A stretch of DNA of 64,000 nt from Fuerstiella marisgermanici (GTDB taxonomy: Bacteria > Planctomycetota > Planctomycetia > Planctomycetales > Planctomycetaceae), in contig NZ_CP017641.1 in NCBI RefSeq assembly GCF_001983935.1, positions 3,596,001 through 3,660,000 on the forward strand, given 5' to 3'. Below are positions 290 through 50,100 of this stretch, piece after piece; position 1 is the stretch's first letter, and the number at the start of each line of letters is the position of its first letter. Position numbers and translations under genes: made by a program. Below the pieces are notes generated by a model that made no database searches, was not told the origin of the DNA, and worked only from the letters and a program-made list of their open reading frames with translations.

Positions 290-431
290 GTCATTGCTCG
301 CATTGTAAACTTCCTAATCCCGGCCGGGTGGTCAAGTCAGAAGCAGGGCCATTCCAGTCGGCAGGACGGCACACCGCCGACGCATCAAACCTTGTCAGAC
401 ACGTTCGCGACGCCAGGAGTGCAGCGGGTTA

Positions 432-30720: not shown

Positions 30721-33700
30721 AGTCACCTGTGATTGAAGACATCGGCAACAAGACGATCGATGAACTGATGGAGTTGTCGTTCACGCCAACGGCCACAGAT
30801 CCGGACACACCCGTCGGCGATCTGGAATGGTCGCTGACGTCCGGCCCATCGGCGGCTTCGGTGAATGCCTCGACAGGCCGTTTCTCATGGACGCCGACAG
30901 AAGCCGACGGCCCGGGCTCATTTGACGTCACGTTGACCGTTTCCGATGGAGGCCGCAGTGACTCCGAAACGTTTACGATCACCGTTGCAGAAGTAAACAC
31001 GGCACCAGAACTGTCCGCGATCGGCAACCAGATCATTAATGAAGGAGCGACGGTCTCCTTTGACGCGAACGCCACGGATGTCGATCTTCCCGCAAACACA
31101 CTCACGTATTCCATCAGCGGCGACGTGCCGACGGGATCAACGTTCAACTCAACGACGGGGCAGTTTTCGTGGGACACCACGACGGCCCACGGCGGCAATT
31201 CTTACGACGTCACGGTGACAGTCAGCGACGGCCAACTTTCTGACAGCGAATCTTTCACCATCACCGTGAACAATGTCGGCGACGGCCTGGCAATCGAGCC
31301 CATTGATGATCAGTCAATCGACGAACTGGTGCCGTTTAGCTACCAGGTGGTCGCGACAGGTTCCAGCAGTGATGGATTGTTAAACCTTGACTTTGAAACT
31401 GCAGCCGACGGCGCCACGTTAAGCAGCGGAGATGTCATTGCTGAGCAGTTCGCAGCGATGGGGATTCACATTACATCGCATGATCCTGCGAATCATCCGC
31501 CGATGATCTTCGATTCCTCAAACCCCACTGGAGGCGATCGCGACCTGGGCACTCCGAATTCCAGGTTCGGCGGCCCGGGAATTGGAAACGGCGGCAAGTC
31601 AGGACGATGGAAAAATGATGTCGCTCGCGAAAACATTCTGATTATTTCGGAAGACGGTGATTCGCAGGATCCCGATGACCGAGCTCGCGGAGGCAGGCTG
31701 ATTCTGACCTTCGATACACCAACGGCGATCGACGAAATCGGCCTGTTGGATGTCGATTCGGGACGAAATACAATTTACCTTTACGATGCCGCCGGACGTC
31801 GGATTTCGAAAGTCAATATTCCGCGGCGCGGTGACAACAGCCACCAGGTACTGGCGCTGAATGCAGAAGGTGTCAGTCGACTGGAACTGGTGCTGTGCGG
31901 TAGCGGAGCGATCACCGATCTGATTTTCGACCGTGACGGCACCCCGCCCACTGGCGGCGGACCGCTCACGTACGCTTTAGCCCCTGGTGCTCCAGCCGGC
32001 ATGACGATCAGCGACACCGGCCTGATTGAATGGACTCCCACGGAAGCGCAAGGGCCAAGCGTTTACGATGTGACGGTTGAAGTCTCCGACGGTGCCAGCA
32101 CGGTGACGGAAACATTTACGGTCACCGTCGCGGAAGTGAACGTTGCGCCTGTCATCACGCCGATCAACGATCAGACGATCGATGAATTAGCGGACTTCAG
32201 CTACCAGGTCGTTGCGAGCGATGCTGACCTGCCGGAAAACACGCTCACCTACTCACTGGCAACCGGTGCGCCGGACGGCATGACGATCAGCAATACCGGT
32301 CTGATCGAATGGACGCCCACCGAATTGCAGGGGCCTGGAATCTACCCGGTCACGGTCGAAGTTTCTGACGGTACTGTGACTGTGGCCGAAGATTTCCAGA
32401 TGACGGTCGGCGAAGTCAACCTTGCGCCTGTCATCACGCCGATCAACGATCAGGCGATCGATGAATTAGCGGACTTCGGCTACCAGGTCGTTGCGAGCGA
32501 TGCTGACCTGCCGGAAAACACGCTCACCTACTCACTGGCAACCGGTGCGCCCACCGGCATGACAATCAGTGATACCGGTCTGATCGAATGGACACCCACG
32601 GAAGCGCAGGGGCCAGGCGCTTACGAAGTGACGGTGGAAGTCTCCGACGGCACAGCCACCGTGACGGAGGCGTTTACAGTGACGGTCGATGAGGTGAACG
32701 CAGCGCCTGTCATCACGCCGATCAACGACCAGACCATCGATGAACTAGCGGACTTCAGCTACCAGGTCGTTGCGAGCGATGCTGACCTGCCGGAAAACAC
32801 GCTCACTTACTCACTGGCAACCGGTGCGCCCACCGGCATGACAATCAGTGATACCGGTCTGATCGAATGGATGCCAACGGAAGCGCAGGGGCCAGGCGTT
32901 TACGATGTCACGGTGGAAGTTTCTGACGGCACGGCCACTGTGACGGAAGCGTTTACCGTGACCGTCGGCGAGGTGAATGTTGCGCCGGTCATCACTCCGA
33001 TTGATGACGTGACCATCGATGAACTCTCAGACTTTAGCTACCAGGTCGTGGCGAGTGACGCGGACCTTCCGGCAAACACGCTCACCTACTCACTGGCAAC
33101 CGGTGCGCCCACCGGCATGAACATCAGCGACACCGGGCTGATCACATGGACGCCAACCGAAGCTCAGGGACCGGACAATTTTGACATCACGGTAGAAGTT
33201 TCTGACGGCACAGTCACGTCGACTGAGCCCTTCCGAATTACCGTTGGTGAAGTCAACGTTGCTCCGGTGATCACGCCGATCGCTGACCAGACAATTGATG
33301 AATTATCGCCGTTCAGCCTGCCGGTTCAGGTTACGGACGTCGATCTGCCGACCAACGCCCTGGACTTCTCACTCGCCAGTGGTGCCCCGGCGGGCATGAC
33401 GATCAGCGCATCGGGTGTGATTGAATGGACGCCGACGGAAGAACAGGGACTGGACGATTACCCGGTCACAGTGGAAGTGTCTGATGGGCAAGTCACGGTC
33501 ACCGAGTCGTTCGTGCTTACTGTTGCCGAAGTGAATGTTGCTCCGGTGTTAGCGGAAATCGCCAATCAAGACGTGGATGAAGAAGCAGAATTCAGTCTGC
33601 AAACCATCGCTACAGACTCAGACATTCCCGCCAACACTCTGACTTACAGCCTCACCGGCACTCCACCCTCCGGTATCGCCATCGACAGCAACGGCCTGCT

Positions 33701-36700
33701 GACATGGACGCCTACAGAAACTCAAGGGCCTGGCACATACGCAATTACTGTTGAAGTGTCGGACGGCGAATTGACGGACTCGAAGACGTTCCAGATTGAA
33801 GTTGCGGAAGTGAATCAACCTCCGGTCATCGAAGAAATTCTGGATATCGCCTTCAACGAACATTCCGCATGGACTCTGCAGGTGGAAGCCAACGATCCGG
33901 ACCTGCCCGTCAACGACCTGACATACGATCTGGTCGGCACTGTTCCGGCCGGAATGGGTATCGACACTGACGGCTTGATTTCGTGGACACCCACGGAAGC
34001 TCAGGGGCCTGCGTCGTACACCGTTAACGTCGAAGTATCCGACGGCAGCCTCACCGATGTTGAAACCTTCAACATCATGGTCAACGAACTGAACCAGGAT
34101 CCGGCGCTGGCTCCAATCGGAAACCGAACAGTCGTTGCAGGCGAATCGCTAACGTTCACCGCTGCTGCAACCGACGGCGACATCCCGGTGAACAACCTGG
34201 TGTACTCCATCACCGGCGATGTTCCTGCGGCAGCCACCTTCAACTCGGTCACCGGTGAATTCGTTTGGAATTCTTCAACAACAGACACACCCGGCGATCT
34301 GGCCATGACGGTTACCGTGGACGATCAGGCGGGCGGCACTGATTCGGAAACTTTCACGATCACCGTTCAGCCTCCGGCCACATCGTCGATCACACTGACA
34401 GAAGACGACCGCTTCCAGACGACCGCGACGCAGTCCATCACCGTTCCCGCCGAAGCATCGTACTTCGAATTCGAAATCCTCAACCTTTCGTTCGACACCG
34501 ATGCCACCGGGAAAATTAGCGACGCCTTCGAAGTCGCACTGCTGGACGCGGACGGAAACTCTCTGGTTCACACCGTCTCCGCCGATCGGGATTCCTACTT
34601 CAATATTTCCGAACCAGGAACCGAAGCTGCGGCTGCAAATACGATCGTGAGCGGAGCGATCGTCCGAGTCGACCTGTCGCACATACCGCCCGGCACAGCG
34701 GCGACGGTCGTCTATCGGTTGGTGAATAACGACAACGCGGCCGGCAACGACACAGCGACTACAGTCACCGTGTCAGAAGGCACGGTCATCGCGGGAGACC
34801 TGAACACGTCCGCCGGTGCAGCGGCCCTTCAGCAAAACGAAGCCACTGGCCCCGTGGACCTGACCACACTCACCGACGTGACAGGCAGCTTCAGTATTGA
34901 GTACGCTCAAACATCCTTTAACAACGACACCAGCACTTTGTTTGCGGACGTGTGGCTGACCAACAACGCCAATCAGCCGATCGATGGCCCGTTCATCATC
35001 GTCGTCGAAAACCTTACTGATCCACTTGTCGCCGCCACAGACTTTGATGGCCGGACAAACGACGGCAATCCGTACTACATCGTGGAAGATCTGTCCGATT
35101 CCGGATCGATTCAGCCGCACGCGACCACGCTTGCTCAAACGCTGACCTTCTTTAACCCGAACAATACCCCGTTCGACTACGAGCTGACCGTGCTGGCCGC
35201 TCCCAACGAAGCCCCAATCTTCACCAGCACGCCGATCACGCTGGTCGAAGCCGGTCGACCATACAGCTACGACTCCAACGCCGACGATCCGGATGGCGAC
35301 ACGCTGACGTATGAATTGCTGGCCGGTCCCGAAGGAATGACGATCGACTCTGCCACCGGTGAAATCACCTGGTCACCGGAAACGGGGGACGAGGGCAACC
35401 ATTCTGTGGTCATCAAAGCGTCCGACGGCCGAGGCGCCTTCGACGAGCAGCAGTTCACCGTCGAGGTGCGCGATCTTGTTCCGAACCGTCCACCGGTAAT
35501 TATTTCATCGCCGGTGACGCAGACGACGCTGTTTGGTGCGACACCGCAGGTCAACATTCCAACTACGATTGGCGTGTGGAATGCCACTCGCGCCGGGATA
35601 GACCTCAACTTCGACACGGGAACGGAGCTGGAAGATCTGCGTGACGACCTTTCCGCCAGCTTTCCAAACGGAACGCTGATCGGCACAAGCAGGCTGGGCG
35701 ACGAATTCTTGTCTGGTGTCGATGTTCTCGCATTGCATGCCGCCGCAAGCGGATTCACAGAGATCAGTCCATTGACGGCTGCTGAACAAACGGCGTTGTT
35801 CAATTTCGTCAGGGACGGAGGCTCGGCAATTCTGCTTCCGGACAACGATGGTGATTTTGCCGCGTTCAGCGATTCGATCCTGGCACCTTTCGGCATGGAT
35901 ACGTCAGGCGTGATTAGCTTCCTCAATCGAGCTGACATCACAGCACCAGAGCACCCGATTTTCAAAGGGCCATTTGGTGAGGTGACCGGGTTTGACACAT
36001 GGTTCCCGTCTCAGATTGTCAATTTCGGCGCCTACGCGACTTCCGTGGCGGCCCTTTCGGGGAATCGTTCTGTCGGTGCTGTGATTGAACCCGGTGCAAT
36101 CGCAGAAGGAAGTGGTGGAGTCGTTGTCTTCTCCGACACGATTAGCGGCTATCCGGATGTCCCCGGTGACCAGGCTGAACGCACGCGGCTGTTCAAGAAC
36201 TCGCTCGCGTGGCTGGGAGGAAGTAATCTCACACGCGAAGTGACTCCGGTCACCATCGCCGAATACGTCGAACTCACGCCGTCTGATTTGGGCTCCACAT
36301 CGACCACCACCTTCAGCACTTTGCCGTCCGACGATGCGTCTGTCTTCGGGGCAGAATTTGCAAACGCCCAAAGCGTCAACTTCGACGTCGATCCGTTCGG
36401 TAACCCGATCCCCAGCGGCACGTTCATCACAACTCAGTACGAAAGTCTGGGACTGGTGATGAACAATTTTCAGGTCAGCAACAGTGTTTACGGTGGCCCG
36501 GCCTCCTCACCCAATGCTACCACGACACCCGCGGTCCCCGGCGAAACACTGGAATTCCAGTTTGTCGTGCCCGTTGTTGCAGTTGGCTTCATAAATACTT
36601 CGCCGGATCAGGATGAAATTGAATTTCTGGACTCTAAAGGCGAGATCATTTTCTCAACTCGCGATCAGAACGCAGAAGTTGGGCCGGATTTCGACACTGA

Positions 36701-39700
36701 TCGTTTCGTTGGCGCAGTGGCGGACCCCAGTCGGCCGATCCATGCTGTTCGCGTGATCAACGCCGATCCGAACGGGTCCGGAAGGCTGGAACTGGACGAG
36801 TTGCTTTTTGTGCCAGCGCAAGCAACCTACGAATACCAGGTCGAAGCTCTCGATCCGGACTTTGACCCGATTCGCTATCAACTGGACGAAGCTCCGTCCG
36901 GGATGATCGTCAACGCAGCGACCGGCCTGATTTCGTGGGCCCCCGGTGCGGACGATGTGGGCACACATACTGTGCGCGTGACGGCCGCAGACGGCCGCGG
37001 CGGCACGGCGACTCAGGAGTATCAGCTGGTAGTTCTGGCTGACCCAACCAATACGGCACCTGTAATCATCAGCGATCCCGTCGACAGCTTTTTCATCCCC
37101 GGCTTCTCAAATCCGGCGAGCGGCGACGTCACACCGCAGCGAATCAGTCTGGACCTCGGCAACGGTGAAACCTTCGACGGCACGGTTTCGATCACGCTGC
37201 CAGCAGAAGCGGGGCGATTTGCTGACATCGTATTGGCTGTGGACGAATCGGGCTCAATGGGCGGCGATCAGGCATGGGTCGCAGACATGATTCCTTTGCT
37301 GGACAATGCGCTGAAGGCTCAGGGAATCGGCGATACGGTGCAGAACCCCAACCGCTTTGCGATCGTAGGCTTCGGTGGAGGGCGCGACGGGATCACGGTT
37401 GGTCACTTCCTGAATCAGGACAAGCCGACTAAGTACACACTGTACGGTCCCAGCAGCGAAGTGGTTGCAACGGGTTCGTACAACCAGGTTGTACCGGAAG
37501 AACTGCTGAACCTGTTGCTGCCGGATGACGGCCGCTATGTGCTCATCGTGGAAGCAGCCGACAATGCAGATCTTCTCGAAGGCATCGACATTGGAATTGA
37601 AGGCCAGGTTGTCGACGGCGTTCGCAAAGAAACTCTCACTCTGAACGAGATCATTGATGATCGACTGTTTCCCGGACAGCCGGTTGAGTATTCGTTTACA
37701 CTAACTTCGCCCGCGCTTTTGAACTTTGATTCTTTAGAGAAAGATTCCCGGCTGCGGTGGACGCTGGATGGCCCGGCTGGCACGATCGCGAACGCTCTGC
37801 ACTTCGACCTGTCCACCAATTCCGTATCTAATCAGATTTTTGATCTCACACCGGGGAACTACAAGCTGACGATCGATTCGATTGACGATGTCGCTGCCGA
37901 CTATCGGTTCCAAATGCTGAACTTGCTGGACGCACCGCAGATCAGTTCCGGCGAAACGATGACCGGAGAGTTTGTGGAAGGCAACGAAACGTTTGTCTAT
38001 CGATTCGATGTCGCGGAAAATCAGAGGTTTCAGTTCACGAACTCGATCACGGCGGTCAACGCCCTAAGCCAGTGGCGTTTAATCCGTCCGGATGGAAGCG
38101 ATGTGACGTTGCCAGCCAGCGTGGGGCTGCCCACGGCCGGCAGTCGACCACTGGGAACAAATCAGCCGGAATTCTCGCTGCCTGACGCTGGTGAATATTT
38201 TCTGCTGATGGAAGCCGGGCACAGTCCTCACGAAGGTAACCAGGAAGTTCGTGTCCCGTCGATCTTTGAATTCACCGTCACAGTAGCCGACGCAGTCCCA
38301 CCAACGTCTATCGCGCTGGGTGAGACGGTAAACGGTTCCATCGACTTCGTCGGCGATGCCGAAGTCTATACCTTCACGCTTAGTGAACGCACAAATCTGT
38401 ATGTCGACGCTCTGACAGTGACGGGCTCTACGTGGACGCTGACGGGACCGGCCGGAACGCAGTCTCCCGTTCGATTTGACACCACAGACTCAATGCACAA
38501 CGCAGATCCGGTGCTGAACCTTGCGTCTGGTGATTACAGCATACGAATCGACAGCAACTCATCTACCGGTCCGTTCGCTTTCCGGATTCTGGACATCAGT
38601 AATTCCGCTGCTGTGACTCCTGGAACGCCGTTCAGCGGGGAACTTACCTTGCCCAACGAGACCGATGTCTACAGCTTTGCCGCGAGCGCTGGCGACAAAG
38701 TTTTCGTCGATGTCGTCACCGGCAGCGATACCTCTAACACGAGATACCGACTCTATACGGAATACGGGCAGGAGGTATACGAATCGATTCGTCTGGAAGA
38801 TTCCGGGGTGATTACTATCCCTGCAGACGGTACTTACACGTTGCTGGTTGAAGGTCAGATCCGCAATGAGGAACAGGATACCTACACAATCAATTTGGTT
38901 CCTGTCGTCTCGACCACTCAATCTCTGACTCTCGGGAGCCGCACCAACGGCACGCTGACGACGCCCGGGGAATCCGCCATTTACACCTTTAATCTCGGAG
39001 ACGACACACAGCTTTACTTTGATGTCCTCACGAACGACTCGAATATTCTGTGGTCGTTGGAAGGACCTCGCGGCGAAGAGATCGATCGGCTGCGATTCGA
39101 CCGAACGGATTCGTATGATCGCGTCGATGCATCCATTGACGCACGAGCGGGCGACTATCGATTAACGATTGAGGCCAGTGGTGATCATGTCGGCAATTAC
39201 AGCTTCGCGCTGCTTGACCTGCTGAATCCAGCTCACACCACGACAGTGTCGCCGAATCCAGGAACTGCAAACCCTTCGGTCTCGATCACGCCAACTCCCG
39301 GACTCGATGCACTGCAATCACAGGTGTTCCGCTTTACCGCAGCTGCAGGTGATGAACTTTCCTTCGTGACCAGCGTGACTGGGTCAATCAACAGTTACTA
39401 TCGAGTAATCGATGCCAACGGTATTGTGCATGTCCCCACTACGTATCTCACGACTGACCGACTGAACCAAACACTCACAGCCGGCGGTACCTACTTCCTG
39501 CTGGTGGAACCGCGGTTTAACAATGGCGACGTTGACGACTGGTCGATGGATATCGACTTTGTACAAAACAATGCTCCAGCGACTCTAACTGGCACAGCGC
39601 TGACAGTTGGGGCAACCACCAGCGGCAATTTGAATACCGCTTCGCAGGTTGACGAATACAAATTCACTGTGACAGAGCGTGGGAACTATTACTTTGACAC

Positions 39701-39908
39701 GCTGACTAACAATAGCAGTATCCGCTGGGATCTCATTGGTCCAACGGGAACTCTTGTATCAAACCGTACGTTTACCAGTACCGATGCTCACAATCAGACC
39801 AACGTCGCTCTTGATCTCGTCCCTGGCGACTACCAGATTCAGATCGAAGCCAGCAGCGGAACCCCTGGCGCCTCAGGGCCAGCGCATACTAAGTTGTTTT
39901 GCCGGTAA
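29733..39908 (+). CDS. giant surface protein, 5' part truncated by the IS
   Basis: The ATG at 29733 follows AAGGG. Residues 1-40 are Arg-rich (WLTKTRIWLRNLL, RVRNHRRNR) and lead to FAEFLEPRLLLTG, with LEPRLLL at residues 42-48. This is the LEPR-xLL N-terminal signature of planctomycete giant extracellular proteins. As the sequence stands the frame gives 3391 residues and runs about 11 codons into the IS (SGPAHTKLFCR). The natural protein would continue through PPC repeats to an RHS core. If translated, this fragment would lack vWA's second half, the SdrD_B region and the RHS tip. Confidence 0.9.
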   Translation: MNLRFWLTKTRIWLRNLLTARVRNHRRNRAFTQARSPFAEFLEPRLLLTGGHTGSTSDPGEFYYSLASASYVYDSDYSRTWVDDSDIMKLTIEPNGSWQHEFFFDGSDVGLTTGEEDIDAFAIRDDGTILISTSGCVNVAGVSHAAGGDLLRFTPTSTGRHTAGTWEMYVDGSDVGISHWENIDAVSELPDGRLVISTQNNAKLNGLNSVRAQDLSVLTLSRTGNYTQGTWQRYLDGSDIGLTSSSEDIDAVSVGGDGSTIHLSTLGTAYVSGPRAYDEDVFTFEASHLGSYTSGSYRNKLTLNASHAGIPSSNDIDAFHAAAADPSNPQSPVIEDIGNKTIDELMELSFTPTATDPDTPVGDLEWSLTSGPSAASVNASTGRFSWTPTEADGPGSFDVTLTVSDGGRSDSETFTITVAEVNTAPELSAIGNQIINEGATVSFDANATDVDLPANTLTYSISGDVPTGSTFNSTTGQFSWDTTTAHGGNSYDVTVTVSDGQLSDSESFTITVNNVGDGLAIEPIDDQSIDELVPFSYQVVATGSSSDGLLNLDFETAADGATLSSGDVIAEQFAAMGIHITSHDPANHPPMIFDSSNPTGGDRDLGTPNSRFGGPGIGNGGKSGRWKNDVARENILIISEDGDSQDPDDRARGGRLILTFDTPTAIDEIGLLDVDSGRNTIYLYDAAGRRISKVNIPRRGDNSHQVLALNAEGVSRLELVLCGSGAITDLIFDRDGTPPTGGGPLTYALAPGAPAGMTISDTGLIEWTPTEAQGPSVYDVTVEVSDGASTVTETFTVTVAEVNVAPVITPINDQTIDELADFSYQVVASDADLPENTLTYSLATGAPDGMTISNTGLIEWTPTELQGPGIYPVTVEVSDGTVTVAEDFQMTVGEVNLAPVITPINDQAIDELADFGYQVVASDADLPENTLTYSLATGAPTGMTISDTGLIEWTPTEAQGPGAYEVTVEVSDGTATVTEAFTVTVDEVNAAPVITPINDQTIDELADFSYQVVASDADLPENTLTYSLATGAPTGMTISDTGLIEWMPTEAQGPGVYDVTVEVSDGTATVTEAFTVTVGEVNVAPVITPIDDVTIDELSDFSYQVVASDADLPANTLTYSLATGAPTGMNISDTGLITWTPTEAQGPDNFDITVEVSDGTVTSTEPFRITVGEVNVAPVITPIADQTIDELSPFSLPVQVTDVDLPTNALDFSLASGAPAGMTISASGVIEWTPTEEQGLDDYPVTVEVSDGQVTVTESFVLTVAEVNVAPVLAEIANQDVDEEAEFSLQTIATDSDIPANTLTYSLTGTPPSGIAIDSNGLLTWTPTETQGPGTYAITVEVSDGELTDSKTFQIEVAEVNQPPVIEEILDIAFNEHSAWTLQVEANDPDLPVNDLTYDLVGTVPAGMGIDTDGLISWTPTEAQGPASYTVNVEVSDGSLTDVETFNIMVNELNQDPALAPIGNRTVVAGESLTFTAAATDGDIPVNNLVYSITGDVPAAATFNSVTGEFVWNSSTTDTPGDLAMTVTVDDQAGGTDSETFTITVQPPATSSITLTEDDRFQTTATQSITVPAEASYFEFEILNLSFDTDATGKISDAFEVALLDADGNSLVHTVSADRDSYFNISEPGTEAAAANTIVSGAIVRVDLSHIPPGTAATVVYRLVNNDNAAGNDTATTVTVSEGTVIAGDLNTSAGAAALQQNEATGPVDLTTLTDVTGSFSIEYAQTSFNNDTSTLFADVWLTNNANQPIDGPFIIVVENLTDPLVAATDFDGRTNDGNPYYIVEDLSDSGSIQPHATTLAQTLTFFNPNNTPFDYELTVLAAPNEAPIFTSTPITLVEAGRPYSYDSNADDPDGDTLTYELLAGPEGMTIDSATGEITWSPETGDEGNHSVVIKASDGRGAFDEQQFTVEVRDLVPNRPPVIISSPVTQTTLFGATPQVNIPTTIGVWNATRAGIDLNFDTGTELEDLRDDLSASFPNGTLIGTSRLGDEFLSGVDVLALHAAASGFTEISPLTAAEQTALFNFVRDGGSAILLPDNDGDFAAFSDSILAPFGMDTSGVISFLNRADITAPEHPIFKGPFGEVTGFDTWFPSQIVNFGAYATSVAALSGNRSVGAVIEPGAIAEGSGGVVVFSDTISGYPDVPGDQAERTRLFKNSLAWLGGSNLTREVTPVTIAEYVELTPSDLGSTSTTTFSTLPSDDASVFGAEFANAQSVNFDVDPFGNPIPSGTFITTQYESLGLVMNNFQVSNSVYGGPASSPNATTTPAVPGETLEFQFVVPVVAVGFINTSPDQDEIEFLDSKGEIIFSTRDQNAEVGPDFDTDRFVGAVADPSRPIHAVRVINADPNGSGRLELDELLFVPAQATYEYQVEALDPDFDPIRYQLDEAPSGMIVNAATGLISWAPGADDVGTHTVRVTAADGRGGTATQEYQLVVLADPTNTAPVIISDPVDSFFIPGFSNPASGDVTPQRISLDLGNGETFDGTVSITLPAEAGRFADIVLAVDESGSMGGDQAWVADMIPLLDNALKAQGIGDTVQNPNRFAIVGFGGGRDGITVGHFLNQDKPTKYTLYGPSSEVVATGSYNQVVPEELLNLLLPDDGRYVLIVEAADNADLLEGIDIGIEGQVVDGVRKETLTLNEIIDDRLFPGQPVEYSFTLTSPALLNFDSLEKDSRLRWTLDGPAGTIANALHFDLSTNSVSNQIFDLTPGNYKLTIDSIDDVAADYRFQMLNLLDAPQISSGETMTGEFVEGNETFVYRFDVAENQRFQFTNSITAVNALSQWRLIRPDGSDVTLPASVGLPTAGSRPLGTNQPEFSLPDAGEYFLLMEAGHSPHEGNQEVRVPSIFEFTVTVADAVPPTSIALGETVNGSIDFVGDAEVYTFTLSERTNLYVDALTVTGSTWTLTGPAGTQSPVRFDTTDSMHNADPVLNLASGDYSIRIDSNSSTGPFAFRILDISNSAAVTPGTPFSGELTLPNETDVYSFAASAGDKVFVDVVTGSDTSNTRYRLYTEYGQEVYESIRLEDSGVITIPADGTYTLLVEGQIRNEEQDTYTINLVPVVSTTQSLTLGSRTNGTLTTPGESAIYTFNLGDDTQLYFDVLTNDSNILWSLEGPRGEEIDRLRFDRTDSYDRVDASIDARAGDYRLTIEASGDHVGNYSFALLDLLNPAHTTTVSPNPGTANPSVSITPTPGLDALQSQVFRFTAAAGDELSFVTSVTGSINSYYRVIDANGIVHVPTTYLTTDRLNQTLTAGGTYFLLVEPRFNNGDVDDWSMDIDFVQNNAPATLTGTALTVGATTSGNLNTASQVDEYKFTVTERGNYYFDTLTNNSSIRWDLIGPTGTLVSNRTFTSTDAHNQTNVALDLVPGDYQIQIEASSGTPGASGPAHTKLFCR
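30720..34375 (+). repeat. He_PIG/cadherin-like repeat block, eight copies with exact 279-bp period
   Basis: Repeats follow the pattern PVI-x-I-x-DQ-IDEL, DADLPENTLTYSL, GMTISDTGLIEWTPTEAQGP, VTVEVSDG. From 32145 the repeat boundary recurs at 32145, 32424, 32703, 32982, 33261, 33540, 33819 and 34098, every 279 bp (93 residues). DNA in 32145-33000 is nearly identical between copies, pointing to recent duplication or gene conversion. Two earlier and less similar copies lie at 30720-31290. One copy is interrupted at 31357-31950 by another domain. Related to putative-Ig/cadherin-like adhesion modules. Confidence 0.85.
31357..31950 (+). other. beta-domain inserted inside a He_PIG repeat
   Basis: The repeat opens with IDDQSIDELVPFSYQVVAT, is broken by about 195 residues (LNLDFETAADG, IAEQFAAMGIHI, LILTFDTPTAIDEIGLLDVD, LELVLCGSGAITDLIF), and resumes with GGGPLTYALAPGAPAGM. 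A similar domain recurs at about 36380-36815 (IPSGTFITTQYESLGLVM, FVVPVVAVGFINTS, LELDELLFVP). It resembles a carbohydrate-binding jelly-roll module, by eye only. Confidence 0.6.
34380..35205 (+). other. beta-rich domain between He_PIG blocks
   Basis: About 275 residues start at SSITLTEDDRFQTTATQSI, run through YFEFEILNLSFDTDATGK and FADVWLTNNANQPIDGPF and end with LTFFNPNNTPFDYELTVLAAP. Similar segments appear in other giant planctomycete adhesins before vWA or SdrD_B modules. No catalytic motif; the family is not named here. Confidence 0.5.
35530..36825 (+). other. GATase1-like plus beta-domain insertion inside a He_PIG repeat
   Basis: The repeat starts PVIISSPVTQTTLFG, then about 430 residues intervene before ATYEYQVEALDPDFDPIRYQ resumes it. 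The insert begins with a GATase1-like fold segment (IGVWNATRAGIDLNF, GVDVLALHAAASG, FVRDGGSAILLPDNDGDF, GGVVVFSDTISG). It ends with the beta-domain also seen at 31357-31950. Confidence 0.6.
37200..37420 (+). other. first half of a von Willebrand A domain
   Basis: IVLAVDESGSMGG carries the MIDAS DxSxS motif (Asp2504), followed by NRFAIVGFGGG, the second strand. The fold then stops after about 70 residues and PPC repeats begin. The missing half appears at 45830-46330 (restored residue Asp4976 in IVVTDEDRD). Confidence 0.65.
39864..39873 (+). repeat. left target-site duplication of the ISAs1 element
   Basis: CCTGGCGCCT, identical to 41165-41174. Ten-base duplications fit the 8-10 bp made by ISAs1-family elements. 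Confidence 0.9.
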
Positions 39909-41164
39909 GGATTTGCATCAAATAGTCAATGTTCCATCCGGCCATTCTTCTTTTCATGACGTTGCTTTGTTTGCCAGGATGTTTCTTGATGAGGCTGAGT
40001 GTGAGTCGTCTGAGCCATGACAAATTGTTCGCGAAGATTCGGTTTCGGACTCGACTCTCATCCTCGCGGTAGGTCATGTCGAGACTCCAGTGCAGCGTGT
40101 TTTCTATGGCCCAGTGACCACGAACCGTTGTTGCGAACAGCTCGCCTTTGCGACGCAGACTGCTGATGTAGTAGCGAACGTCAGAATGATGAATGCCGTC
40201 CTGCTCGTACATTCGGATCGCCGTTCCGATGGTCTTGAGTCCGGCCCATTTGTGGCCCACGTCAAAATCGACAGGCACGGTCGCCTGATAGTAGATTCTC
40301 TGTTCCTGCCGACCGTGTCCCTTCTCTGTTTCTTCATAGCGACTGACGGGACAGCGAGCGAAGTCATCCTCCAGGTGATCGAGAAAAAACTTCTGCACGA
40401 CCTCATAGAGTTTCGGTTGGTTGCCTTTCAGGGCTAACACATAGTCTGCATTGCCAGACACGATCTGCTGCGCAATGTTTTTTTGACAACCCGCTGCGTC
40501 AATCGTAATGATCGCCTCATCGATATTGATTTCGTTCAGTAATTTCGGGATCGCGGTGATCTCGTTCGACTTCTCTTCCGTCGCCACCTGTCCCAGAGAA
40601 ATCCCCTGATCAGAAGCCCACGCACTCACGATGAACAACGCACCCAGCCCATTCTTTTTGTCATGTGATCGACGGAGTGCTTTGCCATCAATCGCAATCT
40701 GTTTTCTGTAGCCTTCTTTCTGTTCGTCGGAAAGTCCTTCCAGCGATTCAATCCATTGCACGAAGCACGCTTGAAAGTCGTTCGGCTTCAGGAGAGAAAG
40801 GACGCGCCGGTACGTATCTTTTTTCGGAATGCCATGCGGAAGTGCCAGGTGTTTCTGCAGGCCATCGGCATTCAGTCGCGCCCATTCCGCAATCGCACTG
40901 GGGCCGTCGGCGTTGGCCAGCACTCCGCAAATGGCGATCACAATCACATCACCAAGCAGATGCAGACGATTGATGTTGGAACGCGGGTCTTTCAGTTGAT
41001 CAAAGTAATGAACAATGTTTCCTGTCAGCTCCTGGGTGACCGCCAGTTCAACTGTCGACATCTCTTGTCCTCTCCTCGTGAAGTCCGATGTTACGACACG
41101 AAAAGACTAACCAATACTCACTTGTCGCGCCAGCCTAAATTGCCCAAAGTGCGCGCTGGCCCTA
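39874..41164. mobile_element. complete ISAs1-family insertion sequence (1291 bp)
   Basis: Ends carry imperfect inverted repeats: CAGGGCCAGCGC at the left and, read inward from the right, TAGGGCCAGCGC, sharing 11 contiguous bases. A 10-bp direct repeat flanks it. It holds a single intact transposase on the minus strand, against the direction of the host gene. Because target duplication, inverted repeats and transposase are all intact, the copy is likely recent and possibly active. Confidence 0.93.
39889..41061 (-). CDS. ISAs1-family transposase
   Basis: The 390-residue protein is full length. The family marks are an N-terminal FDQLKDPRSNINRLHLLGDV helix region, then IAIDGKALRRS, IITIDAAGCQKNIAQQI and the final HWAIENTLHWSLDMTYREDE with WLRRLTLSLI. 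These carry the DDE catalytic acids. GAGG lies upstream of the ATG at 41061. The stop codon (TAG) lies within the left inverted repeat region. Nothing suggests inactivation. Confidence 0.95.
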   Translation of the reverse strand: MSTVELAVTQELTGNIVHYFDQLKDPRSNINRLHLLGDVIVIAICGVLANADGPSAIAEWARLNADGLQKHLALPHGIPKKDTYRRVLSLLKPNDFQACFVQWIESLEGLSDEQKEGYRKQIAIDGKALRRSHDKKNGLGALFIVSAWASDQGISLGQVATEEKSNEITAIPKLLNEINIDEAIITIDAAGCQKNIAQQIVSGNADYVLALKGNQPKLYEVVQKFFLDHLEDDFARCPVSRYEETEKGHGRQEQRIYYQATVPVDFDVGHKWAGLKTIGTAIRMYEQDGIHHSDVRYYISSLRRKGELFATTVRGHWAIENTLHWSLDMTYREDESRVRNRIFANNLSWLRRLTLSLIKKHPGKQSNVMKRRMAGWNIDYLMQILTGKTT

Positions 41165-41174
41165 CCTGGCGCCT
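41165..41174 (+). repeat. right target-site duplication of the ISAs1 element
   Basis: CCTGGCGCCT, a perfect copy of 39864-39873. The giant gene resumes immediately in the frame TAC AGC TTC CGA. Confidence 0.9.
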
Positions 41175-41185
41175 ACAGCTTCCGA

Positions 41186-44100
41186 TTGCAGGATCTAAGC
41201 ACAGCCACACCCATTTCGTTCGGCACAGCCTTTGGCGGTGACCTTACACCCGCAAACGAAACGGACCTATATGAATTCGACGTGGTTGCAGGTGACACAT
41301 TCTACTTCGATGTCGAAGCCGCCAGCGATATCAACAATTCGCTGTACCGAGTCATCGATCCTTTCGGCCGTACGGTATTCACGGCGAACGATCTGCGAAA
41401 CTACGGCCCAACCACACTATCCCTTGATGGCACCTACACGCTGTTGGTCGAAGGCTGGCGAGGTAATACTGATGCCGACACTTACAGCATTAACGTCCAC
41501 AAATTCGCCGACACGGCCGCAATACCACTGACCCTCGGTGAGATGGTGACCGGATCATTTGTCACTCCGGGTGAAGTGATTGTCTACGAATTTGACGCGA
41601 CTGACTACACACAGGTTCATTTCGATTCGTTGACCTATAGTTCCAGCTTCACCTGGAATCTTGCCAATTCGCTGGGAACGGTCGTCACGCCTCGCGGGTT
41701 TCACGCGAGTGACTCATTGTTCGTCAACAACGCAGTTCTAGACCTTCCACCGGACACCTATCGACTGACAGTGGATGCCAGTACAAACGTGACTGGCGAC
41801 TTCGCGTTTCGTTTGCTGGATCTATCCAGTGCCACCCCGATCGGCTTTGACACCGTTATTGCAGACCAATTCGACTACCTCGGTGGCGGAGACGCTGTGT
41901 GGACGACCGGTGTTCCTCTGACCGGCAGTGCTATCAACGGATCGATCGATCTTTCCAAGCCCACCGATTCGCTCAATCTTCCTGCCGAAGTGCTTGACGG
42001 CGTTTCCGATTTCACTGTCGAGTTCTGGTACAAGACCACAAAGACTGGCCTGCAAGGTCTGGTCAGCGCTGCGAATGGCTCGGATGCCAACGAACTGTTG
42101 ATTGAATTAATCTCCGATACTGAGTTCGCCGTTTCGGGTGCCGCTTCCTGGGACATCGCCTCAGTTGCTGATGGCCAGTGGCATCACTACGCAGTCACTC
42201 AGGAAATCGGCGCTGGAACCACCTTCTACCTGGACGGTGTGAGTCAAGGGACACAGGCAGGCACGCGCGGAACGCTTACAGTCGACCCACGCGGCTTGAT
42301 TGTCGGCCAGGAACAGGACGCTGTTGGTTTCAACCTGGATTTGACGCAAACGGCGGACGGTCAATTGGACGAGCTGCGAATTTGGGAAACCGTTCGCACT
42401 GATACAGACATCAGTGACAACAAAGACCAGGTTGTTGCGCCAGGTTCGTCCGGACTTCGAGCCTACTATCGGTTCGACGAAACCAGTGGCGACATCGCAG
42501 CAGATCAGACAGCGAACGACTTCGCCGCGCAGTACACGCGTCTGACTCAGTCGAATTCGACGAAAATGTATCAGTTCACCGCTCAACCCGGCGATATCGC
42601 ACTGTTTGAATCGTTTGGGTCTGACGTCAAGTTCTCGCACAACCCCTATTGGCGACTTGTGGACGAGTATGGAAAGCAGATTTTCAATAGTAACTTCAAT
42701 ACGGCGACCGCTCCCTACACACTTGACGGCGGCACGTACACGCTGTTGGTTGAAGGAGATACGCGAGATGTCGAATTCGACGGCGGCTATTCGTTTCAGG
42801 TCACCTCACTAGGGAATGAGAACACCCCGCTCCCTCCCGTTGCGCTTACGCTTGGTGACGTGGTCGAAAGCAGCATAGATAAGCCTTACGACACTGACCG
42901 CTATTCTTTTAATCTCGCACTCAATTCGCTGGTCTACTTTGATTCGCTTACTAACGACTCAACACTGACATGGTCGCTGGAAACCTCGTCAGGCCGATCC
43001 ATCGTCAGCAATCGTCGGTTCGATCAGTCCGATTCCAGCGGTAACTCATCACCGGTCTTAAGCCTCAGAGCGGGTGAATATAGGCTGAGCATCACGTCCA
43101 ACGCCGTGGAGCCGTACAGTTTCCGTCTGCAGGAATTGACCAACGCGACTCCGATCACGACCGGAGTTTCATTCACGGGTGAATACACCACGCCGAATGA
43201 AACGGATATCTACCGATTTGAAGGCAGCGAAGGCGAACAAATCTACCTGGATGTCATTTCAGACACACCCGCCAGTATCGCCTACATGCGCATTGTTAAC
43301 AGGTTCGGAACCATCGTCAGCACTCAGACACAGATGTTCGATCAGGACGTGATCACCTTGCCGGTCGACGGGACCTACTATTTGTTGTTGGAATCCCGCG
43401 TCAACAATACGGTGAACAACACTTACGAAGTCAATGTAATTTCGGCGACAACGACTCAAGCGGCGCTGACCCTGGGCGCAACGACGTCCGGGAGCATCCC
43501 GGGAATTGGTGATACAACTGAGTACAACTTCACATTGTCAGGTCAGGCGAATCTGTACTTTGATTCGCTCACAGATTCAGCCACCACAACGTGGACATTG
43601 ACTGGTCCGCGCGGAGCCGTCGTCACAAATCGGGCGTTTAGCAGCAGTGATTCCTTCAATCAGGAAGTCCCGGTGCTGCAGTCACTTCCCGCCGGGGACT
43701 ATACGCTGAAGGTTGACGGCACTGGAGAAGCAGTTGGTAACTTCTCGTTCCGTCTGCTGGAGCTTGCAGCACACGCAACTCCGATTGCTCTAGGCACGCC
43801 GGTCAGTGGCGAGCTGACAATTCCCAACGAAACGGATGTCTATACATTTGATGCAGTCGCTGGCCAGCAAATCCTGGTCGACTTCCTTGCCGCCAGCGAC
43901 ACAGACAATTCGCTCTATCGCGTTTTTGACCAGCTCAACAATGAGGTCTTTGAAGTCCGCGACCTGATTGATGGCGATATGCCAGTACTTCCGATAACCG
44001 GCACATATACGTTGCTGATCGAAGGCGGGCGAGGAAACACGGATCAGGACACCTATCAGTTCAATCTGGTCAACACCTCTACGCGGACCACTGCGATCGC

Positions 44101-47100
44101 GATAGGCGACGCTGTCACTGATTCGATTGCCACACCTGGCGAAAAAATTGCTTACACATTCACGGTCAGCAGCGACAGCTTCCTGTATCTGGACTCACTG
44201 ACAGACAATTCGCAATTGAACTGGTCTCTGACAGGACCGACCGGTGAGATTGTCACCGCAAGACGATTCGATCGCACCGACTCCTTCGACTTTGCAACTC
44301 CCGTGTTTGAAACTCGCGCCGGCGATTACACCCTCACGGTCGATGGCCTGCTGGATACCACAGAGGGCTTTGAATTCCGTCTGGTTGACGTCGCCAATGG
44401 TGTTCCGTTCACTCTTCCCGCGACTGTCGGCGATTCCGTCAGCCTGACGGGAACACTTAATCCGGGGGACGTCACAGACGTCTATCGCTTCGTGGCTAAC
44501 GCAGGTGACAATGTCACGTTTGATTCGATACCAGTCCCCAACACCAATCCCAATTACCCGACCAACACCAACGCCTTTTATCGAGTTGTCGATCCGTTCG
44601 GTCGCACTGTGACTACGCGCGTGCTGACCTCCGACCAACCCGATGTCGACCTGCCAATCGACGGCACATACACACTGCTGATTGAAGGCCGCCGCCTCGG
44701 TGCCGTCCCCAACCCCTACGAACTGAACGTCATCTTCAACGGCAATACTGCCCCGCCGGCCATCGCGGGCACTGCAATTAATCTGAGCGATGAGCAGTCC
44801 GGAAATTTGAGCACAACAGGGCAAGTAGATTCGTATCAGTTTACGCTGACGGAACGCTCTCTCGTTCACATGGACACGCTCACCAACAGCAGCGCGTTCC
44901 GCTGGTCTCTGCGGGGTCCACGTGGCGAAGAGGTCACCAACAGGTCATTCACCTCCACAGATTCGCTTGATTCCAGTACCTCCAGCATGGAACTGGTTGC
45001 CGGTACCTATCAGCTGGACATCTTTGCCAGCAGCGGTACTCCGGGAGCGTACGGATTCACGCTACATGACTTTGCGGATGCCACACGCGTCACTGCTGGT
45101 ACTGCATTCCCAGGCACTCCTAACAACACCTTCGAACGTGAAACGGATCTTTACCAATTCGATGCGTTGGCTGGCGAACGATATCTGATTGATGTCGTGT
45201 CTACCAACGACGTCAACAATGGCGAGTTCAAGCTCATCGACGAACATGGAAAGGTGATCGCAACTTCCAATCGAGTTCGCGATCTGGATCAGATTACCAT
45301 CCCGCACGATGGAACGTATACGCTGTTGCTTGAAGGCTATCGAGCGAACACGACTGCGGATGCTTATGAACTGAACATTCTCCCGGTGGTCACCACGAAT
45401 CAGATCCTCGCGCCGGGTGCGTCCAACACAGACAGCATCAGTGCAGGTAGCGAAATCCGATACTCGTTTGATGTCACCACGCCGTCGCTGCTTCTGTTCA
45501 CTCCGCAAACAGACACAAATCAGCTGCACTGGACCCTGTCCAGCGATGTCGGCACCTTTGTCGATTCGCGAGACTTCGATGATGGCATTCTACCAGTCGA
45601 CATCTTACCGGGAACTTATGTGCTGCATGTCGACGGAGTGAATGACTACACAGGCCCCGCCAACTTCACGACCGTCATTGCTGATGCAGCAAACGTCCTG
45701 ATCAATGGCGAGATCGTCAATACTCAGCTGGCAACATCCAATGCTGCGGCAGTCTACCAGTTTAACGCTGTCGCCGGTCAGCATTTTGCTTTGCTGCCGG
45801 ATTACAATCTGCAGTTCGCAGATGCAGCGACGTCGGCAATCACCGCCGAAAACTACATCGCGTTCGCAGAACCGGAAGATGGCTGGTCGGGCATCGACGT
45901 AGTGCGTCGAGCGGACGTGTTCCGTGATGGAGCGGCTATCAACTACATCGTCGTGACCGACGAGGACCGGGACATTCAAGACGACAACCTGTCGTTTGAG
46001 TTCCTGTTCGGCGAACTTTCTGCCGACAGCGCGCTGCTGAATATGGTGGTCCAAAGTCAGTTCCGTGATGAGAACGGTGATCGCGTCATCGGCGTGGATA
46101 GCAAAGGCAACGCCTACCTGGCTGACGGATCCGGTGGGTTTACCGTGACCAACGGCGGTTTCGCGTTGAATCCACAGATCTCCGTCGAGCAGGACTACAT
46201 GAACCTGGCGTGGGCGCTGGACGGTGCGGCATGGGACCTGGGACTTCTGCGAGCCGGAGGACTGTCGGCTGAGTCGTTTACTAAAGCGTTTGTCGACGTG
46301 AAAGTCTCTGAGATTCTGGAGCAAACATCGCTTCGATTGCGGGCCTCCGATCCGAACGCAGAACTGACGCTGATTGATCCGGTCACAGGCGTGTACAGCG
46401 ATGTCGTCGGTGGCCAGACCTACGACTTCGATATCGAAATCGGCAACGACGGCAACCCGAGATCCTTCGACCTGCTGTTCACGCAGGGACAAACGGTTGG
46501 CTCAATCCCCGTCTACATCGTGGCACCGTACGGCTACAACGCGATGGCGGTGGATGCCGATGGCGACACGTTGACCTGGTCGATCACAGAAGGGCCGGAC
46601 GGTTTGGTCGTTGATCCGGCCACTGGAGTTCTCGCCTGGCCCGCTGACAGCGTTGTTTACGGTGTGCATCCGGTGACTCTGCGAGTCGAAGACGGTCGCG
46701 GTGGGTTTGATGAACAAACATTCGAACTGGACGTCAACGGTGGTGAAGCGGCGAGCATAAGTGGGGTGAAGTTCCACGATGAGAATGAAGACGGACTGTA
46801 CCAGACGCTGGTCGACGTGATTGTACCGGGCGATGCTGACCCATACCTCGCCGGAATGCCGGATGGATCGACAGCCAGCGGTGGCGATGTTGCACCCGAC
46901 CAAAGCCCAATTTTCGTCGAAGGCCTGGAACTCATTCCCGGTACTGTGCTGACCTTCGCTGCGGCAGGGCAGGTATCGTTCTCCGGTGCTCCAAACGTGA
47001 ACGAAACGCCGGACGGCAAACTGAGTGGGTATGGGAGTCACGCCGCCGGTGCGGAGAACGGGATCTCCAACATTACCACCAACTGGAATTCGCTGGTCGG

Positions 47101-50100
47101 AATCTTTCTCTCGGATGATCAGCCAGACAGCAACCCGGCTCCAGCGGCGCTCGATTTCATCAATGCGACCGGTGTGCCGGGCGGCATCAACTACGCGTCG
47201 CTCGCTCCGGAATTGCAGCAGGTGTTCTTCATTGGCGACGGAGTTACAGACGACGGAACGATTCAGGCAATCACCGTCCCCGAAGGAGCGACCCGACTGT
47301 TTCTGGGAACGCAAGATGGCACTGGTTGGTACAACAATGCGGGTGAGTTCTTTGTGACAATCAGCGGTCCGCAGGAACCAACCATCCCGGACTGGACCAT
47401 CTACCTCGACCAGAACCGCAACGGCATCCTTGACGATGGCGAACGCTCAACAACCACTGATGCCAACGGCAACTACACGTTCGATAACCTGGAGCCGGGT
47501 AGCTATGTCGTGGCCGAAGAGCTTCAGCCTGGCTGGGAGCAAACTGCTCCCAACACCGGCACCTTCGAAATCACGGTCGCACCAGGCGAAGCCGCCACCG
47601 GCCTGAGCTTCGGCAATAAGCAGGTTCCGCTTGTTAACTCTGATCCACTGATCACCAGCACGCCGCTGAAGACGATTGTGGCTCGCGAAGATTATCGCTA
47701 TCAACCGACAGTCACGGAACTCGACGGCGACGATCTGGCCTTTGATCTGCCGTTGGCTCCCACCGGCATGGCCGTCAATCCGGACAACGGGACGATCTCG
47801 TGGACTCCGCGGCTTGATCAAATCGGACCTCAGAACGTGCTGCTGCGAGTTCGCGACGGAAATGGCGGTTTTGATCTGCAGTACTTCACTATCGACGTGC
47901 AGAAACCGAATACCGCGCCGGTGATCACGTCAACTCCACCAGCCGGGCCTTCAGGAGTCGGCCTGCCGTTTACGTACAACGCCGACGCGGTTGATGCAGA
48001 CGGCGATACGCTGACCTGGTCTTTGACGACAGCTCCCGAAGGAGCCACTATCAATTCAGCAACCGGAGTCATCAACTGGACACCGGCTTCTGATCAGCAG
48101 GGAACGCAGTCGTTTGAAGTGGCCGTCGATGACGGTCGAGGTCTCACTGCAACTCAGGCGTTCGACATGAACGTGCAGGTTGATCCGCCGAATGCCGCTC
48201 CAGCTATCACTTCGCAGCCTCCGCTGGAAGCTCACCTGGGCAACACGTATCTGTATCGAGTGATCGCTACGGATGACAATGGTGACCCGCTGACGATTTC
48301 TCTGGCGACAGCTCCGGCCGGAATGACGATCGACGCGGATGGACTTGTCGAATGGACGCCAACTCCGCTGCAGATCGGCGACAACGCCGTCAGCATCAGC
48401 GTGGCCGATGGTCGCGGTGGCGTGGTGACTCAGGACTTTGATATCAACGTGGCCACTCAGCCGGTCAATCAGGCACCGCAGATTACATCACCGCCGAAGA
48501 CCAGCGCGGTGGCCGGCCAGACCTACACCTTCCAGCCAACCGCCGTTGATGCCAACAACGACACGCTGGTTTGGGAACTGGTGACCGGTCCGAACGGAAT
48601 GTCGATCAATCCGTCAACAGGCGAATTAACTTGGAGCCCGACTGCCGACGACATCGGCAGCGAGCAGGTTGTGATTCGAGTCTTCGACACGTCAGCCGCG
48701 TACTCAGAATTGGGCTACACGCTGAACGTGCGAGCCGTCAATACGCCGCCTGTCATCGGTTCGACTCCGCTGACATCAGCCGCTGTCGGAGCAACCTACT
48801 TTTACGGCGTGGCGGCCACGGATGCGGACGGCGATCTGCTGACGTATTCACTGTCGTCCGCTCCAACCGGCATGGCCATCGATCCAGCCACCGGCGTGAT
48901 CGTGTGGACTCCGGTTGCCGGTCAGGAAGGCACGAATGCAGTCGTCGTGAGTGTTACGGACGGCAACGGTGGAAACGTCAGCCAATCGTTTGACGTCGTC
49001 ACGGCAGCAGGCGTCAGCAACCTGGCACCGACAATCACGTCAACGCCCGGCTTCTTCGCCAGCGTCGGCGAATTGTACAGCTACGATGCGGACGCCACCG
49101 ATCCGGAAAGTGCAGCTCTGACCTACGAACTGCTGCAGTCACCGACCGGCATGACGATTGACGCCAACAGTGGACTGATCGAATGGACTCCGGCCGCTGG
49201 TGACCTCGGCACATCCATCGTGCGCATCGTGGCTCGCGATCCGGCCGGTGCGGGCAGCATCCAGGAATTCAGCCTGACCGTACTGCCTGCCAACAACGCA
49301 CCAGTGATTAATTCTACGCCGCCCGCCACCGTGCCGTCCGGCGGAGTCTATCGTTACGACGTATTGGCCACCGATGCCGATGGTGAGTTCCTCACTTACG
49401 AGCTCACTACGGCACCCGCAGGCATGCTGATCGACGGCGTGGGCCGTATCTTCTGGGTACCAACAGACGGTCAGGTCGGCTCAAATTCTGTCGAAGTCCT
49501 CGTCCGTGACCCACGAGGTGGCGTGGCAACTCAGGCGTTCGATATCACAGTCGAAGTTGATTCCGTCGAACCGCAAGTGGCCGTGCTGCTGAGTACCAAC
49601 CCGGTCAACATCGGCGATTCGGTCGACATCCGAGTTTCCGCTATCGACAACGTCGGCGTGGAATCACTCTCGCTGACGCTTGACGGTGTTCCCGTCGCCC
49701 TGGATTCCACCGGCGTCGCCCGAGTGCCCATGAACAGCCTCGGCAGTATCACCGCCGTCGCCATCGCGACCGACGCCGCTGGTAACAGCGCAAGCGACAC
49801 GATCACGATCTTCGTCGCCGACCCGAACGACGTGGAAGGCCCTGTCCTAAACATCACATCACCATCCGACGGAGGCATCATCACAGCGGTCACTGACGTC
49901 ATCGGCACAGTAACAGACGACACGCTTGTTGAATATCGCCTGTATGTTGCTCCATTCGGCACGAATGACTTCCAGCAGATCGGCAGCGGCAACGCGAATA
50001 TTACAAACGATGTTCTCGGTAAGATCGACCCAACACTGCTGGCCAACGGCAGCTACATCCTGCGACTTGAAGCCTTCGATGCGGGTGGTCGTTCGAATGT

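What the first reader, a model, noticed from the sequence alone, without database searches (positions are those of the whole stretch)
31300..47625. Domains nested inside domains through the giant protein
By eye at least six domains are broken and later completed: a He_PIG repeat by a beta domain (31357-31950); another by a GATase1-like plus beta domain (35530-36825); a third by the whole vWA unit (about 37065 to 46510); vWA by about 2,400 residues of PPC repeats, its MIDAS Asp2504 and Asp4976 lying 2,472 residues apart; a PPC repeat by LamG (41865-42535); and SdrD_B by a lectin-like module (46806-47385). Such repeated nesting is rare and suggests that growth of this protein happens by insertion into surface loops.
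Basis: partly seen in the sequence, partly recalled or inferred. Interest (0 to 1): 0.85.

Follow-up and report, generated by a model that had tools for sequence, protein, structure and literature searches.

The report
Nested domains in a giant adhesin
A huge surface-protein gene of an unnamed bacterium, probably a planctomycete and now cut by a jumping element, has at least seven protein modules that are each interrupted by another module and completed later, one of them with its two halves about 2,400 residues apart around a chain of repeats.

Summary
In detail: all six nests are supported (the leading piece of nest 5 only by motif), and there is a seventh layer. A profile of 35 intact relatives (243 positions) matches the first vWA part at 4-62 and the second at 69-242. 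In 77 measurable related loci the halves lie 22-42 residues apart in 72 and 837-1,809 apart in 5. A Calothrix relative with the same split is modelled as one vWA across about 840 residues. A paralogue lacks the vWA and SdrD_B inserts and has another guest in the nest-2 slot.

New here: (1) vWA sits in an integrin-hybrid-like beta domain inside He_PIG; (2) in 13 of 13 PPC arrays inside vWA the array starts with the second half of a PPC unit and ends with the first half, so the ends could pair and close it into a loop. The model does not show closure.

Corrections: the gene is two ORFs, cut by an ISAs1 element. Nesting is not rare: split domains are known in bacterial adhesins, and most length here is tandem repeats. 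Verdict: real; new variant of a known kind.

The parts
29733..39908 (+). first ORF of the giant gene (3,391 aa); its last residues are read from the insertion element
41186..54388 (+). second ORF (4,400 aa; open from 41111), ends in RHS/YD repeats and an Rhs_assc_core
39875..41163 (-). ISAs1-family insertion element (transposase 39889-41061), one of at least 30 full-length near-identical copies in the genome
39864..39873 (.). 10-bp target duplication, left copy
41165..41174 (.). 10-bp target duplication, right copy
31293..31358 (+). nest 1 host He_PIG, first part (profile 4-25 of 93)
31359..31964 (+). nest 1 guest, a domain without convincing Pfam match (beta by eye)
31965..32144 (+). nest 1 host He_PIG, second part (profile 34-93)
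35490..35525 (+). nest 2 host He_PIG, strand A
35526..36815 (+). nest 2 guests: GATase1-like part (about 35565-36143, matches short frames in two other genomes; label from a weak DUF4350 match and by eye) and a second domain from about 36372
36816..37034 (+). nest 2 host He_PIG, second part (profile 14-86 of 87)
37056..37091 (+). nest 3 host He_PIG, strand A
37122..37208 (+). integrin-hybrid-like beta domain, first part (by homology to modelled relatives)
37209..37403 (+). vWA, first part with MIDAS DESGS (profile 4-62 of 243)
37413..37565 (+). second half of a PPC unit (profile 36-82 of 93), first element of the array
37635..39869 (+). seven near-whole PPC units; the seventh ends at the insertion element
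41213..45670 (+). twelve further near-whole PPC units, one of them split by LamG
41822..41866 (+). nest 5 host PPC unit, leading strand (motif only)
41963..42415 (+). LamG guest (PF13385), in the 10th of 19 PPC units
42539..42802 (+). nest 5 host PPC unit, rest (profile 10-91)
45707..45787 (+). first half of a PPC unit (profile 4-30 of 93), last element of the array
45806..46327 (+). vWA, second part with the Asp of TDEDRD (profile 69-242 of 243)
46328..46510 (+). integrin-hybrid-like beta domain, second part
46511..46738 (+). nest 3 host He_PIG, second part (profile 12-87 of 87)
46757..46804 (+). nest 6 host SdrD_B, first part (profile 1-16 of 97)
46805..47371 (+). nest 6 guest, lectin-like (label by recalled resemblance only); a relative lies in a 258-codon frame of another genome
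47372..47611 (+). nest 6 host SdrD_B, second part (profile 18-97 of 97)

Best explanation
The gene encodes (before the ISAs1 element cut it) a giant secreted surface protein built like a split-domain adhesin. Runs of He_PIG domains make a stalk. Candidate binding modules (an unnamed domain, a GATase1-like domain, a vWA with MIDAS, a LamG, a lectin-like module) are inserted into loops of stalk domains so that they stand out sideways. The deepest nest is He_PIG, in it an integrin-hybrid-like beta domain, in it vWA, in it a PPC array, and in one PPC unit a LamG. Shown by computation: the splits, their complementarity, and empty or differently filled slots in a paralogue and relatives. Inferred: adhesion, sideways projection, secretion and surface display. 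In the present genome the full protein cannot be made as one chain by plain translation, because the element ends the first ORF and shifts the frame.
For: Complementary profile halves for nests 1, 4 and 6, strand A for nests 2 and 3. vWA halves 22-42 residues apart in 72 of 77 measurable loci (80 loci, 3 without a first half), split in 5; split in this loop in 9 of 15 copies in frames of whole-genome relatives. Paralogue: vWA in one piece, SdrD_B unbroken by eye, TSP_C as guest in the nest-2 slot, no PPC hit. A Calothrix relative is modelled as one vWA across the insert (173 residues aligned, 2.7 A, model range 53..1105). Relatives of the nest-2 and nest-6 guests lie in short frames elsewhere. 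The one small vWA relative that I scanned carries a PEP-CTERM sorting signal. Terminal repeats and target duplication of the element.
Against: Binding, secretion and display were not tested. The strand A of nest 3 has low confidence in the L084 model (pLDDT 32-46 in residues 1-30). The leading piece of nest 5 is not found by profile. The guests of nests 1, 2 and 6 have no convincing Pfam match, nor nest 6 a PDB sequence match. No structure of the window's own nests was predicted. The alignment for the Calothrix model held 35 small intact vWAs, which helps the model to join the halves.
Confidence: 0.78

Rival explanations
1. Closed-loop arm (an addition to the best explanation): the half PPC unit at the start of the array and the half at its end pair into one circularly permuted PPC domain at the base of vWA, so the array is a closed loop or ring (20 units in the window) with LamG opposite the base.
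For: 13 of 13 arrays start with the second half (profile start 35-45) and end with the first half (end 30-41); 25 of 26 pieces beat all 200 shuffles, one is matched once. Searched without guidance at E 0.1 the start piece is found in 12 of 13 arrays and the end piece in 7 of 13. With mended type profiles the last piece scores as even-type in 10 of 10 arrays and the first in 9 of 10, as expected if both come from one even-type unit. LamG splits unit 10 of 19 (one case). Both halves occur in named Planctomycetota and Cyanobacteriota.
Against: In the Calothrix model the halves have block pLDDT of 43-67 and 50-67, against mostly 71-93 for whole units, and pTM is 0.45. No coordinates could be read. 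Plain identity of the halves to odd and even units is inconclusive. The type result fits the shifted-register reading too. Piece scores are low (6-28 bits).
Confidence: 0.53
2. Shifted register: in these arrays the folding unit is second half plus next first half, so no closure is needed and the array is an open chain of permuted PPC domains.
For: Sequence alone cannot tell register in a tandem array; the same half pattern and the same type pattern result.
Against: The Pfam PPC model runs across the cut in the usual order within one unit (profile 2-69 of 70, though 16.8 bits is under its cut-off), and the two PPC hits found outside such nests start at position 1-3 and run to 60-61 (L132, L133).
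Confidence: 0.25
3. Growth mostly by tandem duplication: the loops were filled few times, and most length comes from duplication of He_PIG, PPC pairs and RHS repeats. Compatible with the best explanation.
For: Repeat counts; same-parity PPC units are more alike than different-parity ones in 9 of 10 arrays.
Against: Does not by itself explain guests in loops and differing guests in one slot.
Confidence: 0.6
4. Chance look-alikes: fragments near unrelated domains only seem to complete each other.
For: Short leading pieces in nests 2, 3 and 5; nest 5 has no profile support for its leading piece.
Against: Complementary profile cover and shuffles; conserved strand A in 18 nests (17 with at most 0.7% of null windows as high, L059 with 2%).
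Confidence: 0.03

Closest known systems
AhLap, RTX adhesin of Aeromonas hydrophila (PMC12077191)
   Same: Split Ig-like domains project ligand-binding domains; a vWFA emerges from a split beta-roll and is itself interrupted before its fold is complete (passages).
   Different: There the vWFA insert is 9 kDa; here it is an array of about 2,400 residues with permuted ends. No RTX family among the Pfam matches up to E 1 of either ORF.
Integrin beta headpiece (hybrid domain holding the betaI domain)
   Same: Foldseek's first 30 rows for the L084 model are integrin beta chains (best E 5e-12); VIA aligns 262-276 residues over the beta domain and vWA in 12 of its 50 rows, and 284 in the top row for the Calothrix model.
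   Different: rmsd 6.6-11.2 A over both domains; for L084 the vWA alone matches TFIIH and alpha-I domains at least as well; Foldseek on the whole Calothrix model has no integrin in its first 50 rows; no integrin beta family in Pfam scans of the window.
Bacterial sequence like integrin beta (Trichodesmium; cited in PMC3192720)
   Same: A cyanobacterial sequence homologous to more than 450 residues of an integrin beta subunit is cited there (passage).
   Different: I did not compare that sequence; nesting and PPC arrays are not in the passages seen.
SpaC pilus adhesin of Lactobacillus rhamnosus
   Same: Among the Foldseek matches of the L084 model (6m3y, E 1.2e-9).
   Different: Not compared in detail; no PPC array that I recall.
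Cyanobacterial RNA polymerase beta-prime insert (PMC13114784)
   Same: Recursive nesting, six levels (passages).
   Different: Unrelated protein and domains.

Membership tests
vWA domain | one fold of about 240 residues covered end to end by the family profile | tested here: met
   positions 4-62 and 69-242 of 243, in two pieces; a relative with the same split is modelled as one vWA
vWA domain | MIDAS DxSxS and distal Asp | tested here: met
   DESGS at Asp2504 of the first ORF and TDEDRD in the second, by sequence; metal binding not testable; which residues make the site is recalled
split-domain adhesin | a second domain inserted in a loop of an Ig-like or beta domain | tested here: met
   nests 1, 2, 3, 6 by sequence
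split-domain adhesin | guest binds a ligand | not testable with these tools
   needs protein
RTX adhesin | RTX repeats | tested here: not met
   no RTX family among Pfam matches up to E 1 of either ORF
RTX adhesin | type I secretion signal and retention domain | not tested
   no search for them was made
integrin beta | hybrid-like domain holding a vWA | tested here: inconclusive
   seen in models of two relatives, with high rmsd over both domains; not modelled for the window
integrin beta | recognised integrin beta family by sequence | tested here: not met
   no such Pfam match up to E 1 or up to E 10 in the pieces
Rhs/YD protein | RHS repeats and Rhs core | tested here: met
   25 RHS_repeat stretches, Rhs_assc_core E 1.6e-17
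Rhs polymorphic toxin | C-terminal toxin domain | not tested
   no search of the tail by itself was made; whole-ORF scans named none
ISAs1 insertion element | transposase, terminal repeats, target duplication | tested here: met
   NF033564 E 5.6e-105; 16-nt repeats and 10-bp duplication

The most novel reading that the evidence does not exclude
A vWA whose fold is opened by a chain of up to 20 PPC domains closed on itself: the first and last half units make one circularly permuted domain at the base, giving a covalent polypeptide loop that hangs from a MIDAS domain and, in the window, carries a LamG at its far point. This would be a distinct way to build an adhesin arm, shared by Planctomycetota and Cyanobacteriota.
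Probability: 0.47. Interest if true: 0.8.

Novelty: new variant of a known kind. Interest (0 to 1): 0.62.

Why it matters
It gives a natural series (no insert, two whole PPC-like domains, arrays of 4 to 19 near-whole units) for how a domain tolerates an insert about ten times its own size, and slots that are empty or differently filled in a paralogue, so growth of giant bacterial proteins by loop insertion can be tested. If the half units close the array, it is an unusual topology to look for in other surface proteins. It also warns that profile scans see only fragments of such domains: Pfam scored the first vWA part at E 0.073 and gave no vWA match for the second.

Tried and rejected
Profile detection of the nest 5 leading piece failed. 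Profile of the vWA second half against PDB sequences: no match up to E 0.1; lectin-like guest: one match, E 0.84, to an unrelated transporter. LamG relatives in the 80 loci: none at E 1e-4, so nest 5 was not folded. Foldseek on the whole Calothrix model ranked CUB and other beta proteins first, with a collagenase collagen-binding domain pair at rank 8 (5iku) and no integrin in the 50 rows; the VIA second look put integrins first.

Typing of the half units: the first attempt was flawed, because a half piece of L065 had been counted as a whole unit and trained the odd-type profile; there the last piece scored even-type in 10 of 10 arrays and the first odd-type in 7, even-type in 2, with one tie. 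Mended (L065 half piece and L066 left out of training): last even-type in 10 of 10, first even-type in 9 of 10. Plain identity stays inconclusive.

The tree of 91 second-half sequences asks for 5 changes of the split state (at least 3 by starred branches; none of 500 shuffles as low), with 28 of 86 inner branches open, so one or several origins cannot be told. It counts G092 as split, although its insert is two whole PPC-like domains by eye (the PPC profile has no hit in it), and leaves out G471a, G471b, G032 and the second G070 copy, whose second halves are cut again.

Rows dropped: 3 of 80 loci had no first half in frame (L063, L125, L127). Giants not in the He_PIG count: G101a, G101b, L132, L133 and several long frames. 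Weak PPC hits outside the arrays (P0001 1561-1630, L138 3931-4015) were left out of the unit counts.

Papers: listings show nothing on PPC arrays inside vWA (only listings seen; of the nine paper searches only named the PPC domain); one search found no paper. That the permuted array is unpublished rests on these searches only.
Full report
What is there. The region is not one ORF. It is two long frames, 29733-39908 (3,391 aa) and 41186-54388 (4,400 aa; open from 41111), separated by an element with an ISAs1-family transposase on the minus strand. The element has 16-nt terminal inverted repeats (88% complementary) and a 10-bp target duplication 1,301 bases apart, and the genome holds at least 30 full-length, near-identical copies (40 of 59 candidates scored).

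Nest 4, vWA. The Pfam model sees only the first 47 of 174 positions in the first part (E 0.073) and nothing in the second. A profile that I built from 35 intact relatives (243 positions) matches residues 2493-2557 of the first ORF at positions 4-62 (53.5 bits) and residues 1541-1714 of the second ORF at positions 69-242 (185.4 bits): two parts, no overlap. In 80 related loci (best 80 of 106) both parts could be measured in 77: 72 have them 22-42 residues apart and 5 have 837-1,809 residues between them. Of 15 copies in frames of whole-genome relatives, the window included, 9 are split in this loop and 6 are not. Three of the nine look split a second time further on (G471a and G471b by about 430 residues, G032 by about 75), and one of the six (G070, second copy) is split only there.

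Other nests. Nest 1: host positions 4-25, then 34-93, 0 of 200 shuffles each. Nest 6: positions 1-16 (10.5 bits), then 18-97 (95.8 bits), 0 of 500 shuffles each. Nests 2 and 3: the second parts lack the first 13 and 11 positions of an 87-position He_PIG profile, and the missing strand stands before the guest (20.2 and 14.5 bits; 99% of 9,535 null windows are below 2.5). Against the earlier profiles the same leading pieces had been weak (3.1 and 1.5 bits; 1 and 4 of 200 shuffles as high). Sixteen further nests scored include fifteen with at most 0.7% of null windows as high and one (L059) with 2%. In a model of the L084 unit this strand has low confidence. Nest 5: LamG is complete (positions 4-151 of 151), the PPC unit continues after it from position 10, and the leading strand is recognised by motif only.

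A seventh layer. Between He_PIG strand A and vWA, and again after vWA, are the two parts of a further domain, which align by eye in the window and nine relatives. Models of two relatives match integrin beta chains over this domain plus vWA: 284 aligned residues for L062, and 262-276 in 12 of 50 rows for L084, where Foldseek's first 30 rows are integrin beta chains (best E 5e-12). The rmsd over both domains is high (6.6-11.2 A), the L084 vWA alone matches TFIIH and alpha-I domains at least as well, and Foldseek on the whole L062 model lists no integrin in its first 50 rows. So the topology is like that of an integrin hybrid domain holding a vWA; membership is not claimed.

The array. With a PPC profile of 93 positions, built from 99 near-whole copies in ten giant proteins, the array in the window has 19 near-whole units. 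It begins with positions 36-82 of a unit and ends with positions 4-30 of a unit. Of the 26 end pieces, cut out where whole units stop, 25 beat all 200 shuffles and one is matched once. Searched without such guidance at E 0.1, the start piece is found in 12 of 13 arrays and the end piece in 7 of 13. Two PPC copies outside such nests start at position 1-3. The one split vWA without this pattern, G092, has two whole PPC-like domains in the same loop by eye. The simplest structural reading is that the halves pair at the base of vWA and close the array. Type profiles support one origin of both halves (even-type in 10 of 10 last and 9 of 10 first pieces, after a flawed first try), but this fits a shifted register too. 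The model does not show closure: the half units have block pLDDT of 43-67 and 50-67. In the window the LamG splits unit 10 of 19, the middle one; this is one case only.

Insertion or duplication. A paralogue in the same genome (frame G000:C1:4066979-4080823, 4,615 codons) has much the same order of parts by eye, but its vWA is in one piece, its SdrD_B is unbroken, it has no PPC hit, and its nest-2 slot holds a TSP_C domain (E 7.2e-24) in place of the GATase1-like guest. The nest-2 guest matches frames of 311 and 266 codons in two genomes besides its own, of 118 searched, and the nest-6 guest a frame of 258 codons. So guests differ between copies of one slot. Yet most of the length is repeats: 13 + 8 He_PIG stretches, 25 RHS stretches and 19 PPC units, with same-parity units more alike in 9 of 10 arrays, against about 1,040 residues in the guests of nests 1, 2, 5 and 6.

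How it works. Most likely a surface adhesin: a He_PIG stalk, with guest modules projecting from split domains, as argued for RTX adhesins (PMC12077191 and PMC10865825, passages). Adhesion, projection and ligands are inferred. In the one small vWA relative that I scanned (Marinobacter nauticus) a PEP-CTERM sorting signal follows, which fits surface display.

Known or new. Domain insertion as such is common (20% of multidomain proteins; six-level nesting known; PMC13114784, abstract and passages). A vWA acting as a split domain is known with a 9-kDa insert (PMC12077191, passages). An integrin-beta-like sequence in a cyanobacterium was reported earlier (cited in PMC3192720, passage). What I have not seen in the listings of the searches made is a vWA opened by a PPC array with permuted ends.

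Noticed in passing
window 39875-41163: ISAs1-family element with at least 30 full-length near-identical copies in the genome, which suggests a recent burst; one copy cuts the giant gene.
   Followed up: yes
window 41186-54388, C-terminal third: RHS/YD repeats with an Rhs_assc_core before the last 180 or so residues; the tail was described only.
   Followed up: no
L011/L012, G000:C1:4066979-4080823: Uninterrupted 4,615-codon paralogue with much the same order of parts, a TSP_C guest and no PPC hit.
   Followed up: yes
L049, L053, L056, L030: In G471a, G471b and probably G032 vWA is split twice, and in one G070 copy only at the later loop (profile about 155-190); the G070 guest matches bacterial Ig families.
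   Followed up: partly
L020:19103-19630: A GH115_C-like domain (E 9e-13) sits within the first half PPC unit of a G025 array, by eye; G070 has a gap of similar size.
   Followed up: partly
L062, L065, L066: Three cyanobacteria share the He_PIG, vWA, PPC nest with planctomycetes; in the tree their second halves group with a planctomycete (L059), support 89/66.
   Followed up: partly
L093:9614-10540: Intact vWA relative as a small protein with a PEP-CTERM signal; many of the 80 loci are small frames of about 280-380 codons.
   Followed up: partly
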